NCBI GenBank assembly: GCA_019308645.1 | Contig: JAFDHR010000165.1 | Coordinates: 1 to 5,728, forward strand | Length of the DNA: 5,728 bases | Source of the DNA: Deltaproteobacteria bacterium | GTDB lineage: Bacteria > Desulfobacterota > DSM-4660 > Desulfatiglandales > B25-G16 | Direction: 5' to 3' | Part shown: positions 1-5,639 of the stretch, piece by piece | Layout: every line of letters starts with the position of its first letter | Position numbering within the stretch: the stretch's first letter is position 1 | The notes under the pieces: model-generated | Databases searched by the model: none | Told to the model about the DNA's origin: nothing | What the model saw: the letters and a program-made list of their open reading frames with translations, nothing else | Program-made: the position numbers and the translations under genes

Positions 1-44
1 TCATCTTGTAAGATGAAAATAACGTTTTCACGGTCTGTTATCTT

Positions 45-67
45 TGATGCTTTCATAAAAAGCATCA
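45..67. repeat. Perfect 9-bp hairpin over the cassette C stop codon
   Basis: TGATGCTTT and AAAGCATCA pair perfectly around a 5-base loop and include the TGA stop of the AlbA_2 gene. On the minus strand no T-run follows, so it is not a canonical terminator for that gene. It could limit 3' RNA decay or be part of a degenerate cassette end. Confidence 0.5.
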
Positions 68-892
68 TAACATATATTTTTTAATTGCGCAATTAATTAT
101 GACGTTCAGTATAGCTGTAAATTTCACATTGAATGCGCTCCAGACTGCCCAATTGTTGCTGTCAAGAGGTTGAACAGATAATGAGCATCCTCCACTAACG
201 GTAGATAACACAATAATGTTCATGAAAATATCACTAGCAATGCCCCGACCACCATTCGATAATTGCAAGCCTAATTTCAAATTTAACTGTGGTGGGTTCC
301 CATTTACAAATTGGGGGATAGATATGCCAAACATGTGGAACACAGAAGGTTCTGGTCGTCTTCCAAACATGCCTGAAAGTACTGCGTGGGGAGTTGGGCT
401 AAAATTTGAACCTGTTCTGATATAATAATGATACTGCCCTTTCCCGGAGGAAATAACTTGGTGAGGAGCGTGGTTACTTTTGGGGATTAAAGTAATTACA
501 TAACCCTGAGGTTTATCTTCTGAATAGATAGAATGATTTTTCACTTCAGTATGTTGCGGAATAGTACAACTTGAAATTGCGCCTTCAAGCCAACTCTCGA
601 ATTTTTTTGCATCCTCTAAAGGGAATTTGGCCTGAGCAACATCTGCATAATCTACTCCGTCTCTACAATCTACTCCCCAAACAATTACACCCCCTTCAGA
701 GTTACCGAATCCTGAAATAGCTTTTGCTAGATTTTTTCTGTCATCTGGATCAAGTTTTCTTCCTGATCCCTCTCGAGTAGACCGCTTAAAATCTAAAAAT
801 AATGATTCAGTTTCACGGTTATCTATAAACTCATCAATTGCAGCCTCACCTTTTTCAATAATTTGTTCAAATATTTCTTCTGCATGGCCCAT
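65..892 (-). CDS. AlbA_2 (Schlafen-type) domain protein, integron cassette C
   Basis: A 275-residue soluble protein. Residues about 26-165 match the AlbA_2 / divergent AAA-4 family (PF04326), the fold shared with Schlafen proteins: ESLFLDFK at 29-36, a helix leading into AKAISGFGNSEGGVIVWGVD at about 56-75, and YYIRTGSNFSP at 156-166. The acidic/Lys set E29, D34 and K36 resembles the Schlafen nuclease pocket, but nuclease activity is inference. Residues 185-275 look like a beta-rich second domain (LSNGGRGIASDIFMNI at 211-226) that ends abruptly in IKKYML, so the C-terminus may be shortened. The ATG is supported by GAGG seven bases upstream. The start lies only 19 bases beyond the attC core at 911-917, as in a typical cassette. 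Bacterial AlbA_2 proteins are annotated as DNA-binding regulators or as parts of defence systems; the exact role here is unknown. The family call is firm, the function is not. Confidence 0.85.
   Translation of the reverse strand: MGHAEEIFEQIIEKGEAAIDEFIDNRETESLFLDFKRSTREGSGRKLDPDDRKNLAKAISGFGNSEGGVIVWGVDCRDGVDYADVAQAKFPLEDAKKFESWLEGAISSCTIPQHTEVKNHSIYSEDKPQGYVITLIPKSNHAPHQVISSGKGQYHYYIRTGSNFSPTPHAVLSGMFGRRPEPSVFHMFGISIPQFVNGNPPQLNLKLGLQLSNGGRGIASDIFMNIIVLSTVSGGCSLSVQPLDSNNWAVWSAFNVKFTAILNVIINCAIKKYML
81..96. repeat. 16-bp perfect palindrome TTAATTGCGCAATTAA
   Basis: The palindrome lies inside the last codons of the AlbA_2 gene and is followed on the minus strand by GTTATGA (71-65), a heptamer similar to the array's core sites. 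It could be a dimeric protein-binding site or a remnant of a recombination site. No function is shown. Confidence 0.4.
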
Positions 893-910
893 ATGATGTC
901 CTCATTTGAG

Positions 911-983
911 GTATAACGCCCACAATCACCTGTTCAGCGGAAGCCGCAGGCTGTAGCTAATCAGGTGCATTGTGATGTTATAT
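911..983 (-). other. Integron attC site between cassettes B and C
   Basis: Read on the minus strand, this 73-base site runs from core box ATATAAC (983-977) to core box GTTATAC (917-911). The arms CACAAT-G-CACCTG (974-962) and CAGGTG-ATTGTG (932-921) pair over 6+6 bases and leave a single extrahelical G at 968. Short unpaired spacers (two bases and three bases) separate the arms from the core boxes. The 29-base loop forms a variable terminal structure. One imperfect palindrome, an extra base on one arm and AAC...GTT ends are the hallmarks by which an integron integrase recognises a folded attC bottom strand. Recombination is expected between G and TT at 917/916. The site follows the cassette B stop by 29 bases. 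Confidence 0.88.
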
Positions 984-1012
984 TTTAAGTTCTCATAGAT
1001 TTCAAAATTGCT

Positions 1013-1528
1013 TTAAGTTGAAGAATGTAACTGAATCCAATCAGAATAACCCTCATTATTTTTTACTGTTTTAAAACGATATTGTTCTTCAAACTTAACC
1101 GGAATTAGATAGAGTTTAAATCGAAATTTTATCATTATCTCAGCGCTTGTTGGAATGCCCTTTGGAATGATGTTTTCATTGATAAATACTGTTGTAGTTT
1201 CTCCCGCCTTTAATTTAGGGATGTGATTGTTTTTTGGCCTAAAAGTCCCTCCCCGAAATTTCACATTAAATATTTTCATTTCTATAAAAAAGCATTCAAA
1301 CTCCAGATCCTTTACAGGAAGGAACCCATTATTTGTGATCGTAAAGGACGTATTGAAAGGGTTATGCGGACTAATGATCAAACCTGGTGCAACAATGACT
1401 TTTGGCATAAAAGCATAGATGCTGAATAAAAGAGATACACCACCAAGGATTGCGAAAATCTTTTTCCAAGACCACCTTACACCCTCAACAGCCTTTTGTA
1501 TTTTCGTTTTTTCAAAGTCATTTTGCAT
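1013..1528 (-). CDS. Single-pass membrane protein with exported beta domain, cassette B
   Basis: A 171-residue protein of no family I recognise. After a charged N-terminus (residues 1-22) comes one hydrophobic segment at about 24-43 (KIFAILGGVSLLFSIYAF). A beta-rich domain of about 125 residues follows (for example TSFTITNNGFLPVKDLEFEC at 59-78), with alternating hydrophobic residues and NNG turns reminiscent of an immunoglobulin-like fold. By the positive-inside rule the N-terminus (RWSWKK) is cytoplasmic and the beta domain faces the periplasm or exterior. No Shine-Dalgarno sequence precedes the ATG, which lies only 14 bases from the upstream attC, so initiation may depend on upstream translation or an attC-linked signal. 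It is the sole gene of a 631-bp cassette bounded by two attC sites. Its role is unknown. Confidence 0.8.
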   Translation of the reverse strand: MQNDFEKTKIQKAVEGVRWSWKKIFAILGGVSLLFSIYAFMPKVIVAPGLIISPHNPFNTSFTITNNGFLPVKDLEFECFFIEMKIFNVKFRGGTFRPKNNHIPKLKAGETTTVFINENIIPKGIPTSAEIMIKFRFKLYLIPVKFEEQYRFKTVKNNEGYSDWIQLHSST

Positions 1529-1541
1529 GAGATCAGTTTAA

Positions 1542-1596
1542 ATATAACCCCAAATCAGCGGCATGGTAGCATGTCCGCTGCATTTGGATGTTATGA
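1542..1596 (-). other. Integron attC site between cassettes A and B
   Basis: Read on the minus strand, this compact 55-base site runs from TCATAAC (1596-1590) to GTTATAT (1548-1542). The arms CCAAAT-G-CAGCGG (1587-1575) and CCGCTG-ATTTGG (1561-1550) pair over 6+6 bases with one extrahelical G at 1581. The spacer next to the outer box is AT, exactly as in the other attC. The loop is only 13 bases and contains CATG-gtag-CATG, a tiny hairpin. The stems differ in sequence from the other site while the architecture is identical, which is what attC recognition by structure predicts. The TAA stop of the upstream cassette gene (1593-1591) lies inside the outer box. Confidence 0.9.
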
Positions 1597-2019
1597 TTTT
1601 TTAGCAGCTTTTTCTTGAGTAATCTCATGCTCTTCAATTAATTCAGATTGAAGCCTTTTAACGATTTCTTTAACTTCACGTTTATCCTTAAAAGAAGAAA
1701 TATCTTTAAAGTTTAAAGGTTTCGTCTCTAACAGCATCGCCAGATTTTGCAACTCCATAATTATCTTATAGTATTTATTTGATTTTTCATGGAGATTACG
1801 AATTTCTTCTAAATAACTCTCATAAATTTTTTCCGCCGGGGCAGTTGGAATATCGTTTTCGTAAAATGTCTGAATGGCAAATTTTAAATCATTTTCAAAA
1901 AAATCATATGTAGTACCAACAAAAGCAAATAATAACTGTGTAGATTCCCAAAAGATATCTTCTCCAACAAGACTTTTTATTTTGTAAAATGGAGAGATAA
2001 GAAAAATTTTTTTTATCAT
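1591..2019 (-). CDS. C-terminal part of frameshifted cassette A protein
   Basis: This 142-residue frame is probably not an independent gene. Its N-terminal MIKKIF is the in-frame continuation of the 5' fragment (1904-2320) if one base is removed from the A8 run at 2014-2007, giving a single 242-residue product. What can be seen is a helix-rich, charged cytoplasmic region. VGEDIFWESTQLLFAFVGTT (18-37) is amphipathic, about residues 65-100 could form a coiled coil, and the tail EEHEITQEKAAKKS is strongly charged. The stop codon is embedded in the downstream attC, which is common for integron cassettes. No Shine-Dalgarno sequence is evident before this ATG, which supports a frameshifted fragment over a separate start. 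I recognise no family, and the function is unknown. Confidence 0.65.
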   Translation of the reverse strand: MIKKIFLISPFYKIKSLVGEDIFWESTQLLFAFVGTTYDFFENDLKFAIQTFYENDIPTAPAEKIYESYLEEIRNLHEKSNKYYKIIMELQNLAMLLETKPLNFKDISSFKDKREVKEIVKRLQSELIEEHEITQEKAAKKS

Positions 2020-2320
2020 ACATTAAAAATTTTCTGTCTAATGATTCTTTTCGCATCGGAATATTTACTTTATTAGAACCTTTAAACTCTTTGAGTAGCC
2101 TTAGGCTTAAAGCCCAATTCTCCCTGAAAATTTCTAAAGCATGATCAACATTGGACGAGATTAAATCCACTCCTTGTTCTAGGTATCGTTTAATTATTTG
2201 TTCATGTTCTCTTTTTTGAAAATATGTTAATAGCCCTAGCCTGTAACCTAACCAAATAGAGACTAAAACAGGAAGCAATGAGAACAAAATCGGTTTTATC
2301 TCGGATAGAAATTCAATCAT
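1904..2320 (-). CDS. N-terminal part of frameshifted cassette A membrane protein
   Basis: A 138-residue frame whose first 104 residues look genuine and whose tail (105-138, rich in Cys, Trp and Tyr) looks like out-of-frame translation. A hydrophobic segment at about 10-31 (ILFSLLPVLVSIWLGYRLGL) predicts one membrane pass. It is followed by basic FQKREHEQIIKRY and a long helical region with probable coiled-coil character (ALEIFRENWALSLRLLKEF at about 61-79). At residues 102-104 (DKK) the gene meets an A8 run; one A fewer joins it to the frame at 1591-2019. An in-frame stop lies about 25 bases upstream with no other ATG between, so the ATG at 2320 is the likely start, though no Shine-Dalgarno sequence is seen. 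The whole would be a membrane-anchored helical protein of unknown function. Confidence 0.6.
   Translation of the reverse strand: MIEFLSEIKPILFSLLPVLVSIWLGYRLGLLTYFQKREHEQIIKRYLEQGVDLISSNVDHALEIFRENWALSLRLLKEFKGSNKVNIPMRKESLDRKFLMYDKKNFSYLSILQNKKSCWRRYLLGIYTVIICFCWYYI
2002..2014 (-). other. A8T5 slippery tract at a frame break
   Basis: On the minus strand eight A's are followed by five T's. Both cassette A fragments read through this tract in different frames, and loss of one A would restore a single 242-codon gene. The cause may be a real mutation, a homopolymer sequencing error, or transcriptional slippage that yields a mixture of products. Confidence 0.6.
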
Positions 2321-2377
2321 AATAGAGATAAAAGAATAAGTGTTGAGTTAAAAATGCTTATACTTTTATATTTCGAA

Positions 2378-2384
2378 TCATAAC
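2378..2384 (-). other. Candidate outer core site of cassette A (possible attI end)
   Basis: GTTATGA on the minus strand resembles the core boxes of the two attC sites (GTTATAC, GTTATAT) and lies 58 bases before the first gene of the array. No attC-type complementary arms are found upstream of it, as would be expected if it belonged to an unstructured attI or were a chance match. A heptamer in AT-rich DNA is weak evidence. Confidence 0.25.
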
Positions 2385-2522
2385 ATAATACCAGACGTTT
2401 TATAATGCGTAATATTCTACGCGATTATTTCGCGAATATGTTAAAATTCTGTTATTTCAGTGTATTACATATAATTAGTATTATATAGAGTAAATAAATA
2501 CGCCTTTATGTTTTTCGATGTA

Positions 2523-2573
2523 GCTCTTTTAAGCGGAAATCACGTGCCTGATAGGAGAAGGGCACAAAAGAGC
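2523..2573 (+). other. Nested hairpin, possible structured RNA
   Basis: GCTCTTTT (2523-2530) pairs with AAAAGAGC (2566-2573), and inside it GTGCC (2544-2548) pairs with GGCAC (2561-2565). The two stems abut on the right side, while the left side carries a 13-base bulge. AGCGGAAA occurs both in the bulge region and just after the outer stem. I do not recognise an RNA family. Confidence 0.35.
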
Positions 2574-2735
2574 GGAAAGCTTGTGGAGGTGAACAGTAAA
2601 ATTAAAAACAACTGGAACAGGAACTATTGTTGTAACGAGTAGATATCTGGAACTTTCTCGTATCCAGCACGTATTTCATTCCTACACCCCAGAAAATGTT
2701 TATGTCAATATATTTCGTAACTACGCAGGTTGTCA

Positions 2736-2835
2736 GGTTCAAGGTTCAAGGTTCACGGTTGGTTGCCTTATCTTCATGCTGGTTTCTGTTCATAGTTTTC
2801 TAACCTTGACCTGTGAACCACTGAACTTTGAACCT
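2736..2835. repeat. GGTTCAA inverted repeat, MITE-like
   Basis: Three tandem 7-base units GGTTCAA, GGTTCAA, GGTTCAC (2736-2756) face an imperfect inverted copy ending in CTGTGAACCACTGAAC...TTTGAACC (about 2811-2834), with about 55 bases between the arms. The form suggests a dispersed, non-autonomous repeat. Copy number cannot be judged from one window. Confidence 0.55.
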
Positions 2836-2887
2836 CCTAAGAAACTAAATTTAAAATTAGGAATTAGCAATAAAAAAAGTTGCTTAT

Positions 2888-2914
2888 GAAACTCTTATGT
2901 AACTTATAAGTTTC
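2888..2914. repeat. Hairpin GAAACT-TTAT / ATAAGTTTC
   Basis: GAAACTCTTAT pairs with ATAAGTTTC with one bulged C and a 7-base loop. It overlaps a short direct repeat, CTTATGAAACT / CTTATGTAACT. It lies about 195 bases before the queuosine salvage gene and is not followed by a T-run. Confidence 0.35.
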
Positions 2915-3015
2915 TCCCATTTATAACCTTGAAGCGAGGCGTCAGGGTCATTTGCTGAGTAGTAACTATATTTGTTGAAATTCTAATACAGGTGTTTTCC
3001 GGATAGGTAACCTTG

Positions 3016-3045
3016 TTTACAAAGATTGGTAGACTCTGATATGTA
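3016..3045 (+). promoter_or_regulatory. Possible sigma-70-like promoter of the qng1 gene
   Basis: TTTACA (3016-3021) and TATGTA (3040-3045) are separated by 18 bases and lie about 63 bases before the start codon. Each box departs from consensus, so this is only the best match in the leader. Confidence 0.25.
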
Positions 3046-3107
3046 TACGGGTAAAATGATTTCTTTGAGCAAAAAAAGTATCATGATTTTTCAATAGGGT
3101 TAAAACT

Positions 3108-4070
3108 ATGAACCAGGTTCTTGAAACAACCCGGCATGTAACCAAGAGGAGCCAGCAGGTAACGATTGATAAACAGGCCCTTGCTGATTTCTCAAAGAAA
3201 TTGATTAAGGATGGAATTGAAATTCCCCCCTGGAATTATGACTATCACTTTTTCGATGGCGGTCACAAAACGGTTGCCTACCTCCTTGTGCTGGATAGCA
3301 TCAATTTCTGCTTCTGGCCGGCACCGGGTGAGGTTAAATTGGAAGTCCAGTATAAATCAGAAACACTCTCAGGGTATTATGCCCTTGCAGCATGTCTGAA
3401 AAAGGCACTCGATTCAGGAGTTCCAATCACCAGGGCTAAGTATTTAGCTGAACTATCTTTAGATAAATTCAGACAGATCTTGGGTGGAAAAGGAGAATTG
3501 CAGCTCATGGAAGCCCGCGCTCACATCCTGAATGAACTGGGAGCGTTTCTTATTACCAAATATAATGGAGAGGCGAACAGGCTCGTGGAGTCCGCTGGAA
3601 ACTCGGCGCTAAACTTGGTCGGGTTGCTTGTTGAAAACCTGCCCTCTTTCAGGGATGTTGCAAAATACCATGGAAAGAAGATATATTTCTATAAGCGGGC
3701 GCAGATATTTGTCGCGGATCTCTATGCGGCATTTGGCGGTAAAGGCTGGGGGTATTTTAAAGATATTGATTATTTAACTGCCTTTGCCGATTACAAACTA
3801 CCCCAGGTGCTGCGACATGTTGGCATATTTCAATATAGTCCCTCTATGGAGCATAAGGTGGATCAGGGTATCTTTCTTGAGGCAGGAAGCCCTGAGGAGA
3901 TTGAGATCAGGGCCAACACCATCTGGGCGGTTGAGCTGATTCGTCAGGAATTGAGGCGACTTGGAAAAGATATAAGGGCCTTTGAGATAGATTGGATCCT
4001 GTGGAATCTGGGCCAGGAAAGCCAGTTCAAGGCAAAACCCTATCATCGGACAGTAACCATTTATTACTGA
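3108..4070 (+). CDS. qng1: Queuosine-5'-phosphate N-glycosidase/hydrolase, Qng1 (DUF2419) family
   Basis: A 320-residue soluble enzyme, full length for the queuosine salvage family (PF10343, human QNG1/C9orf64). The family hydrolyses queuosine 5'-monophosphate to free queuine, a base that Tgt can reuse. Conserved blocks recognised: SINFCFWP at 64-71, YFYKRAQIFVADLYAAFGGK at 193-212, FADYKLPQVLRHVGI at 226-240, EIEIRANTIWAVELI at 264-278, IDWILWNLGQ at 294-303, and the C-terminal PYHRTVTIYY at 311-320. No signal peptide or membrane segment is present, so it acts in the cytoplasm. AGGG eight bases before the ATG supports the start. The gene lies upstream of tgt on the same strand, which fits a salvage pair, although the 369-base spacer may separate the transcripts. 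Its base composition is clearly less AT-rich than that of the cassettes. Confidence 0.93.
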   Translation: MNQVLETTRHVTKRSQQVTIDKQALADFSKKLIKDGIEIPPWNYDYHFFDGGHKTVAYLLVLDSINFCFWPAPGEVKLEVQYKSETLSGYYALAACLKKALDSGVPITRAKYLAELSLDKFRQILGGKGELQLMEARAHILNELGAFLITKYNGEANRLVESAGNSALNLVGLLVENLPSFRDVAKYHGKKIYFYKRAQIFVADLYAAFGGKGWGYFKDIDYLTAFADYKLPQVLRHVGIFQYSPSMEHKVDQGIFLEAGSPEEIEIRANTIWAVELIRQELRRLGKDIRAFEIDWILWNLGQESQFKAKPYHRTVTIYY

Positions 4071-4439: not shown

Positions 4440-5639
4440 ATGTTTTCATTTAAGCTTTTAGCAAAGGATAAGGCGGCACGGGCAGGTGAAATTGTTACTC
4501 CTCATGGCGCTATCCAAACACCCTCATTTATCCCTGTGGGGACTCTGGCAACGGTAAAGGGTCTATCAGTAGAGGATCTTCGCCGAATTGGGAGCCAGGT
4601 CATTATTGCCAACACCTATCATCTGCATCTGCAACCAGGAGAAGATCTCATAGAGAAAATGGGAGGGCTTCATCAATTTATGGGCTGGGAAGGTCCGCTC
4701 ATAACCGACTCTGGTGGTTTTCAGATTTTTAGCCTTGGTGCAGCTAAAGAACACGGGGTGGGGAAAATCGTATCCATCTTTCCCTATGGGAAAAATCACG
4801 GTGGGCACATAAGTTCGAAAAAAGGGAAACCCCTGGTAAATGTTGATGAAGATGGAGTGGAATTTATCTCATACCGGAATGGCACACAACATCGGTTCAC
4901 ACCTGAGCGGGTAATAGAGATAGAAAGGAAACTCGGTGCAGATATTATACTTGTATTGGATGAGTGTACCTCCCCCCTTCATGATTACGAATACACTACA
5001 AAGGCAATGGACAGAACCCACCGCTGGGCCATCAGGGCACTGAAGGAATTTAAGCGCACTTCCTTTAAGAGTCAGGCGCTTTTTGGAATCGTTCAGGGTG
5101 GAGCGTATCAAGATTTGAGGGAGAGGAGTGCTCGATTTATTTCGGGGCAAGACTTTGATGGCTATGCCATTGGTGGCTCTCTTGGAAAATCTACAGAAGA
5201 GATGCACCAGGTCTTGGAATGGACAATCCCTTCCCTTCCCCAGGATAAGCCGCGGCATCTTTTAGGGATCGGTGAGATAGGGGATATATTTGAAGTAGTA
5301 AAGCGAGGGGTAGATCTCTTTGACTGTGTGTTACCCACACGGTTGGCACGCACCGGCACGCTTTTTACAAAAGAAGCGGAGAGGTTTCGGATGCATATCC
5401 GTAATGCACAATATACAAATGATCCCCGCCCGATCGAAAATGGATGCGATTGCTATACGTGTCGCAATTTTTCAAGGGCGTATCTCCGACACCTGTTTAT
5501 GGCCAAAGAGCTTTTGGCAATACAACTGGCAAGCATCCACAATCTGTATTTTCTGGAATCACTGATGCGCCAAATACGCACTGCGATAAAAGAAAAAAGG
5601 CTTGCGGAACTGAAAAAAGAATGGTTTTCTACAACATAA
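4440..5639 (+). CDS. tgt: tRNA-guanine(34) transglycosylase (Tgt), probable queuine-accepting type
   Basis: Exchanges guanine-34 in the anticodon of tRNAs with GUN anticodons (Asp, Asn, His, Tyr) for a 7-deazaguanine base. The 399-residue protein carries the full catalytic set: general acid D90 in TDSGGFQ, DECTS at 174-178, FGIVQGG at 215-221, nucleophile D295 in FDCVLPTRLARTG, and zinc ligands C336, C338, C341 and H367. Two features differ from preQ1-using bacterial enzymes. The substrate loop reads GGSLGKS (245-251) instead of GGLAVGEG, removing the bulky Val and the Glu that contacts preQ1. An insertion of about 30 residues lies at about 101-135, making the protein longer than the usual 370-385. 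Both recall, from memory, chlamydial Tgt, which uses queuine. An in-frame stop two codons upstream fixes the ATG; its Shine-Dalgarno sequence is weak. The adjacent qng1 supports queuine salvage. Confidence 0.96.
   Translation: MFSFKLLAKDKAARAGEIVTPHGAIQTPSFIPVGTLATVKGLSVEDLRRIGSQVIIANTYHLHLQPGEDLIEKMGGLHQFMGWEGPLITDSGGFQIFSLGAAKEHGVGKIVSIFPYGKNHGGHISSKKGKPLVNVDEDGVEFISYRNGTQHRFTPERVIEIERKLGADIILVLDECTSPLHDYEYTTKAMDRTHRWAIRALKEFKRTSFKSQALFGIVQGGAYQDLRERSARFISGQDFDGYAIGGSLGKSTEEMHQVLEWTIPSLPQDKPRHLLGIGEIGDIFEVVKRGVDLFDCVLPTRLARTGTLFTKEAERFRMHIRNAQYTNDPRPIENGCDCYTCRNFSRAYLRHLFMAKELLAIQLASIHNLYFLESLMRQIRTAIKEKRLAELKKEWFSTT

What the first reader, a model, noticed from the sequence alone, without database searches (positions are those of the whole stretch)
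911..2384. An integron cassette array with two architecturally identical attC sites
The sequence shows two imperfect palindromes (911-983, 1542-1596) with the same plan: GTTAT-type outer boxes, an AT spacer, 6 bp + one extrahelical G + 6 bp, and unrelated loops. They separate three unrelated small minus-strand genes. By established knowledge this pattern is diagnostic of attC sites recognised by structure. The shared G and AT positions suggest one integrase lineage made both. Cassette functions are mostly unknown, so these three are candidates for undescribed accessory traits.
Basis: partly seen in the sequence, partly recalled or inferred. Interest (0 to 1): 0.8.

Follow-up and report, generated by a model that had tools for sequence, protein, structure and literature searches.

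The report
Integron gene cassettes without their integrase
Two hairpin-forming DNA sites in a desulfobacteria-like genome fragment are genuine integron recombination sites separating swappable small genes, an ordinary kind of gene-shuffling array in which no integrase gene is seen nearby.

Summary
Confirmed. Window 911-983 and 1542-1596 are attC sites of integron gene cassettes on the minus strand. A covariance model built only from four attC candidates of other genomes finds both, on the minus strand, at E = 8.7e-8 and 8.6e-7; it finds nothing in 478 kb of other loci. Each cassette's R'' box complements its own cassette's 5' end over 9 bases, against 5-6 for the R' it faces in the linear array, as excision as a circle predicts. 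Relatives of genes 1 and 2 lie next to attC sites in other genomes, gene 1's beside an integrase gene, though not in every genome. No integrase is detectable in the window, so this is best read as a CALIN (attC cluster lacking an integrase) or a stranded piece of an integron. Gene 1 is truncated and gene 3 split between frames; a fourth cassette probably starts at 71. New member of a known kind. Mildly unusual: sampled attC sites of this lineage often carry C, not the usual G, as bottom-strand extrahelical base.

The parts
1542..1596 (-). attC site of the gene 3 cassette (top strand = minus; recombining bottom strand = plus)
   Evidence: 29.5 bits, E 8.6e-7, minus strand; fold z about -6
911..983 (-). 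attC site of the gene 2 cassette
   Evidence: 33.0 bits, E 8.7e-8, minus strand; fold z about -4
2378..2384 (-). R' box GTTATGA, right edge of the array and 5' end of the gene 3 cassette
   Evidence: 9 contiguous bases complementary to that cassette's R''; only GTT on this strand between 2445 and 2320
1549..2384 (-). Gene 3 cassette, 836 bp
   Evidence: Boundaries at G/TT
1904..2320 (-). Gene 3, first frame (138 aa); 76-81% of it matches the best relatives
   Evidence: relatives of about 235 aa
1591..2019 (-). Gene 3, second frame (142 aa ORF; its first codons lie before the frame change), like the second half of the relatives
   Evidence: by inspection of frame 2 beside P0129
918..1548 (-). 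Gene 2 cassette, 631 bp
   Evidence: Boundaries at G/TT
1013..1528 (-). Gene 2, 171 aa, predicted N-terminal helices plus beta-sandwich, unknown function
   Evidence: Six close relatives; no Pfam family over its cut-off; weak model
65..892 (-). Gene 1, SLFN_AlbA_2 domain, truncated after residue 261
   Evidence: Pfam PF04326 E 1.6e-9; alignment to P0007 stops at 261 of 362
65..71 (-). R' box GTTATGA, probable start of a fourth cassette with an open frame from 68 or 56 to the window's end

Best explanation
The stretch 71-2384 is an array of integron gene cassettes read on the minus strand: gene 3 - attC - gene 2 - attC - gene 1 remnant - probable next cassette. Each attC works when its bottom strand (the window's plus strand) becomes single-stranded and folds; an integron integrase recognises the hairpin by its unpaired central spacer and extrahelical base and cuts at the G/TT of R'. 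A cassette leaves as a circle, in which its own 5' end becomes the R' partner of its R''. With no integrase in the window, the array is a CALIN or a piece cut off from an integron, and if it still moves it depends on an integrase elsewhere in the cell. Shown: architecture, polarity, boundaries, attC beside relatives of genes 1 and 2 elsewhere. Inferred: recombination itself, origin of the array, absence of an integrase from the genome.
For: Independent model hits on the gene strand only (33.0 and 29.5 bits on minus, 5.2 and 7.0 on plus; next best 9.6), none in 478,249 bases of 38 other loci at E up to 10. Own-end complementarity 9 and 9 bases against 5 and 6 in the linear array. Gene 1 relative flanked on both sides by attC hits beside an integrase gene in G271. 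Gene 2 relative starts directly after an attC in G252. Integrase over the family cut-off in 38 of 85 genomes of the order, attC hits in 22 of 85.
Against: No integrase or attI found in the window. The nearest relative, G001, has no attC hit and no strong integrase match, only short pieces such as two near contig ends. The second gene 1 relative (G051) and two of three gene 2 relatives had no attC hit. Gene 3 was found in no searched genome. The four model sites were chosen by eye from scan hits.
Confidence: 0.94

Rival explanations
1. The array is the far part of a complete integron of the same genome, parted from its integrase by a rearrangement or by assembly, rather than cassettes inserted one by one into a stray site by an integrase acting in trans.
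For: Integrases are common in the order (38 of 85 genomes over the cut-off). A gene 1 relative sits beside an integrase in G271. The window's genome is not held.
Against: Upstream of the array edge, where intI would be expected, lie 61 bp and then a 26-base block (2446-2471) and a 71-base block (2986-3056) shared with the nearest relative, then the salvage gene. The 26-base block is short, so this is modest evidence.
Confidence: 0.4
2. The palindromes are ordinary hairpins (intergenic terminators or repeats) between unrelated genes.
For: They lie between co-directional genes and fold well on both strands.
Against: Strand-specific model hits, none in 38 other loci, 0 of 300 shuffles with an equal score, and 9-base complementarity between R'' and cassette ends 600-800 bp away, which a terminator does not predict. 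Rfam gives no match.
Confidence: 0.02

Closest known systems
Integron attC site (T-N6-G type bottom strand, the type most easily excised by IntI1, PMC3053210 passages)
   Same: R''/R' boxes, unpaired central spacer, 6 bp on either side of one extrahelical base, base in L'', top strand equal to gene strand
   Different: Extrahelical base is C, not G, on the bottom strand; PMC3053210 names dfrA1 (A-N7-8-C) and blaVIM-2 as sites with C
CALIN (cluster of attC sites lacking an integrase; PMC9024848 and PMC8618304, passages)
   Same: Two attC sites, no integrase in the window, decaying genes
   Different: The genome outside the window is unseen, so absence of an integrase is not established
Integron of genome G271 (L142)
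   Same: attC plan, and a gene 1 relative (59% identity to P0007) as a cassette
   Different: Has an integrase gene beside its cassettes; its gene 1 relative is full-length (367-aa ORF)

Membership tests
attC site | R'' (..TAAC) and R' (GTTA..) outer boxes | tested here: met
attC site | Inner L boxes with an extrahelical base in L'' and an unpaired spacer | tested here: met
   base is G on top, C on bottom
attC site | Match to an attC covariance model | tested here: met
   own model R1; the published IntegronFinder and HattCI models were not available
attC site | R'' complementary to the 5' end of its own cassette | tested here: met
   9 and 9 bases
attC site | Recombination by an integron integrase | not testable with these tools
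   Needs an assay
Complete integron | Integrase gene intI next to the array | tested here: not met
   Pfam on six ORFs; tblastn with the L142 integrase gives one E 1.8 hit while finding L069, L070 and L120; valid for the window only
Complete integron | attI site and Pc promoter | not tested
   No model of attI for this lineage; no promoter scan was run
CALIN | At least two attC sites, no integrase in the vicinity | tested here: inconclusive
   Met within the window; DNA beyond position 1 is unseen

The most novel reading that the evidence does not exclude
The integrons of this desulfobacterial lineage use an attC subtype with a nearly fixed core (T, extrahelical base, CA; TGA on the other arm) in which the extrahelical base is relaxed and most often C on the bottom strand, so that their integrases read the position rather than a G. 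Genes 2 and 3 would be undescribed membrane-anchored cassette families.
Probability: 0.35. Interest if true: 0.45.

Novelty: new member of a known kind. Interest (0 to 1): 0.3.

Why it matters
It adds a well-supported cassette array in a desulfobacterial lineage, with three cassette genes of unknown function (genes 2 and 3 match no Pfam family over its cut-off; none of eight proteins matched a defence model; gene 1 has only an AlbA_2 domain). The own-end complementarity test needs no model and could separate real cassettes from chance palindromes in raw sequence. The mixed extrahelical base in this lineage is a natural experiment on how integrases choose a strand.

Tried and rejected
Rfam at gathering threshold: no match. 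Conserved gene 3 to gene 2 order: the cassette before the gene 2 relative in L137 shows no significant similarity to a gene 3 relative, so a two-cassette unit was dropped. Defence models: no match for eight proteins. Structures: the gene 2 model is weak (pLDDT 61), with best PDB hits to Kir channels (E 4e-4, TM about 0.4) and a pilus chaperone-subunit complex (E 1e-3); the gene 3 family model (P0129, pLDDT 73) is helical with no hit at E up to 0.001; neither supports a function. Gene 3 family in plasmids: one 28% relative in Nitrosococcus, without an attC hit at E up to 0.01. In viral contigs: none confirmed. Window 65-2400 in plasmids by DNA: none. The short palindrome at 65-102 was considered as a decayed attC; it is short, the model does not report it, and its outer box does not fit gene 1's 5' end, so it is only noted. 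In one search I first placed the array-edge R' one base off (2385) and got a false mismatch; corrected.

Full report
What is in the window. The right half holds a queuosine salvage gene (3108-4070) and tgt (4440-5639) on the plus strand. The closest genome by the salvage protein is a deltaproteobacterial MAG (L001, B33_G16, 79% identity); the next are Desulfobacterales and related MAGs. The left part holds three minus-strand genes with palindromes between them at 911-983 and 1542-1596.

The palindromes are more than chance. As single-stranded DNA they fold about 4 and 6 standard deviations better than dinucleotide shuffles, on either strand. A structural scan of the window gave exactly these two at its main setting; 300 shuffled windows gave 15 hits, the best at 8.9 against 9.7 and 10.9.

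They are attC sites by an independent model. I chose by eye four attC candidates outside the window: two on an intI contig of G023 (L070), one on an intI contig of G002 (L072) and one beside a distant gene 2 relative in G252 (L137); they are four of the nine hits of the scan, the other five being left out as unlike attC. A covariance model made from these four only scores the window sites at 33.0 and 29.5 bits (E 8.7e-8 and 8.6e-7) on the minus strand and at 5.2 and 7.0 bits on the plus strand; the next best match in the window has 9.6 bits (filters off). With default filters in 46 sources (383,633 bases) both are found again at E 5.9e-6 and 5.7e-5. In the 38 loci (478,249 bases, not all from desulfobacteria) it finds nothing at E up to 10 with default filters. 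In 85 genomes of the order of G001 it finds matches at E up to 0.001 in 22; G001 itself has none.

Cassette boundaries. In a cassette the R'' box at the 3' end must pair, in the excised circle, with the cassette's own first bases. Gene 3: 5' end GTTATGATT from 2384, own R'' AATCATAAC ending inside the attC at 1542-1596, 9 contiguous bases; the linear partner matches 5. Gene 2: GTTATATTT from 1548, own R'' AAATATAAC, 9 bases; linear 6. The GTT at 2384 is the only one on that strand between 2445 and 2320, so the rule predicted the right place. In the four further cassettes examined, one in L137 and three in L142, own ends match over 8, 9, 8 and 8 bases against 4-5 for the linear partner. For the L137 cassette and the first two of L142 I chose the 5' end partly because it matched; for both window cassettes and the gene 1 relative in L142 it was fixed beforehand or unique.

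Relatives of the genes sit in cassettes elsewhere, but not always. P0007, the closest gene 1 relative, matches 2 of 395 genomes of the phylum at E up to 1e-40. In G271 (59% identity) the gene lies between attC hits at 8760-8814 and 9959-10014 of L142, on a contig with an integrase gene at 6799-7836 (Phage_integrase and SAM-like domains; 50-55% identical to intI genes of L069, L070 and L120). The other, G051 (44%), had no attC hit at E up to 0.05 in the 16 kb searched. Gene 2 has six close relatives in the protein collection and three distant ones (26-32% identity) in 395 genomes. The best of these starts directly after an attC (L137); the other two (L138, L139) had no attC hit at E up to 5. 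Gene 3 has 14 relatives in the protein collection but none in 85 or 395 genomes, so its status elsewhere is untested. Gene 1 itself was absent from the 85 genomes of the order at E up to 1e-30.

No integrase, and signs of decay. No ORF of six tested matches an integrase. The tblastn search with the L142 integrase gives one 21-residue hit at E 1.8, while it finds intI in three control loci. Homology to L001 covers the salvage gene and continues upstream only in two short blocks, 2986-3056 and 2446-2471, and then stops; L001 has there two small genes that look like a mazEF pair (recalled likeness, not tested). The array edge at 2384 is thus 61 bp from that last short block. Gene 3 is split between two frames. 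Gene 1 stops matching P0007 at residue 261 (position 110), where P0007 goes on for 101 residues; 111 of the 120 listed gene 1 relatives are 340 aa or longer. An R' box at 65-71 followed by an open frame to the window's end looks like a fourth cassette.

Polarity and the extrahelical base. In seven contigs with an integrase gene (L070, L072, L120, L126, L127, L130, L142) all 13 attC hits at E up to 0.05 lie on the integrase's upstream side and read away from it, as in known integrons (positions). In 26 aligned sites from 18 sources (17 with hits; L144 had none; two rows lack the R boxes) the top-strand extrahelical base is G in 14, C in 6, T in 4 and A in 2; without the window G is 12 of 24. 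Among the 13 integrase-linked sites it is G 5, C 4, T 2, A 2. Top-strand G means C on the recombining bottom strand. PMC3053210 (abstract and passages) states that most attC sites have G there, names dfrA1 and blaVIM-2 as sites with C, and reports that C is accepted or favoured by several integrases. The window sites thus depart from the common form but not from their lineage. The model was built with two G, one C and one T, so the tally leans to G. In the alignment the T and A beside the base are fixed in 26 of 26, while the arms vary with compensating changes: 82 two-sided cells against 31 in shuffles. That alignment is fitted to the model, so this is supportive only.

Comparison with what is known. 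Integrons in Desulfobacterota are already reported, and cassettes of chromosomal integrons are mostly of unknown function (PMC8618304, passages). CALINs are about as common as complete integrons, 2961 against 2760 (PMC9024848, passages). A search for integron, cassettes, Desulfobacterota and attC gave four papers (listing); of these I read passages of PMC8618304 only. I found no paper on an extrahelical-base preference in this lineage with the searches (listings; passages read of PMC3053210 and PMC8946536), which is weak evidence because most subscription journals are not held. Searches were seen as listings only, apart from PMC9024848.

Verdict. It is a genuine, partly decayed cassette array with no integrase in view: a new member of a known kind.

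Noticed in passing
window 1-71: An R' box (GTTATGA, 65-71) is followed on the minus strand by an open frame from 68 or 56 to the window's end, probably a fourth cassette.
   Followed up: partly
window 65-110: Gene 1 loses homology at 110; just beyond lies a short palindrome (65-102) with attC-like outer boxes, perhaps a remnant of a lost attC.
   Followed up: partly
window 2472-2985: About 514 bases with no counterpart at that place in L001, including short repeats (TTCAAGGTTCA type) of which one piece recurs elsewhere in L001 (858-897).
   Followed up: no
L001 924-1513: Two small minus-strand genes resembling a mazEF toxin-antitoxin pair (recalled likeness) lie where the window has the cassettes.
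   Followed up: no
L144 2953-3624: A distant gene 3 relative (28%) on Nitrosococcus halophilus plasmid pNHAL01 lies near two annotated tyrosine recombinase genes, with no attC hit.
   Followed up: partly
L001 3127-3549: The tgt gene of L001 appears to lack its middle part compared with the window's tgt: a 140-aa ORF against 399 aa.
   Followed up: no
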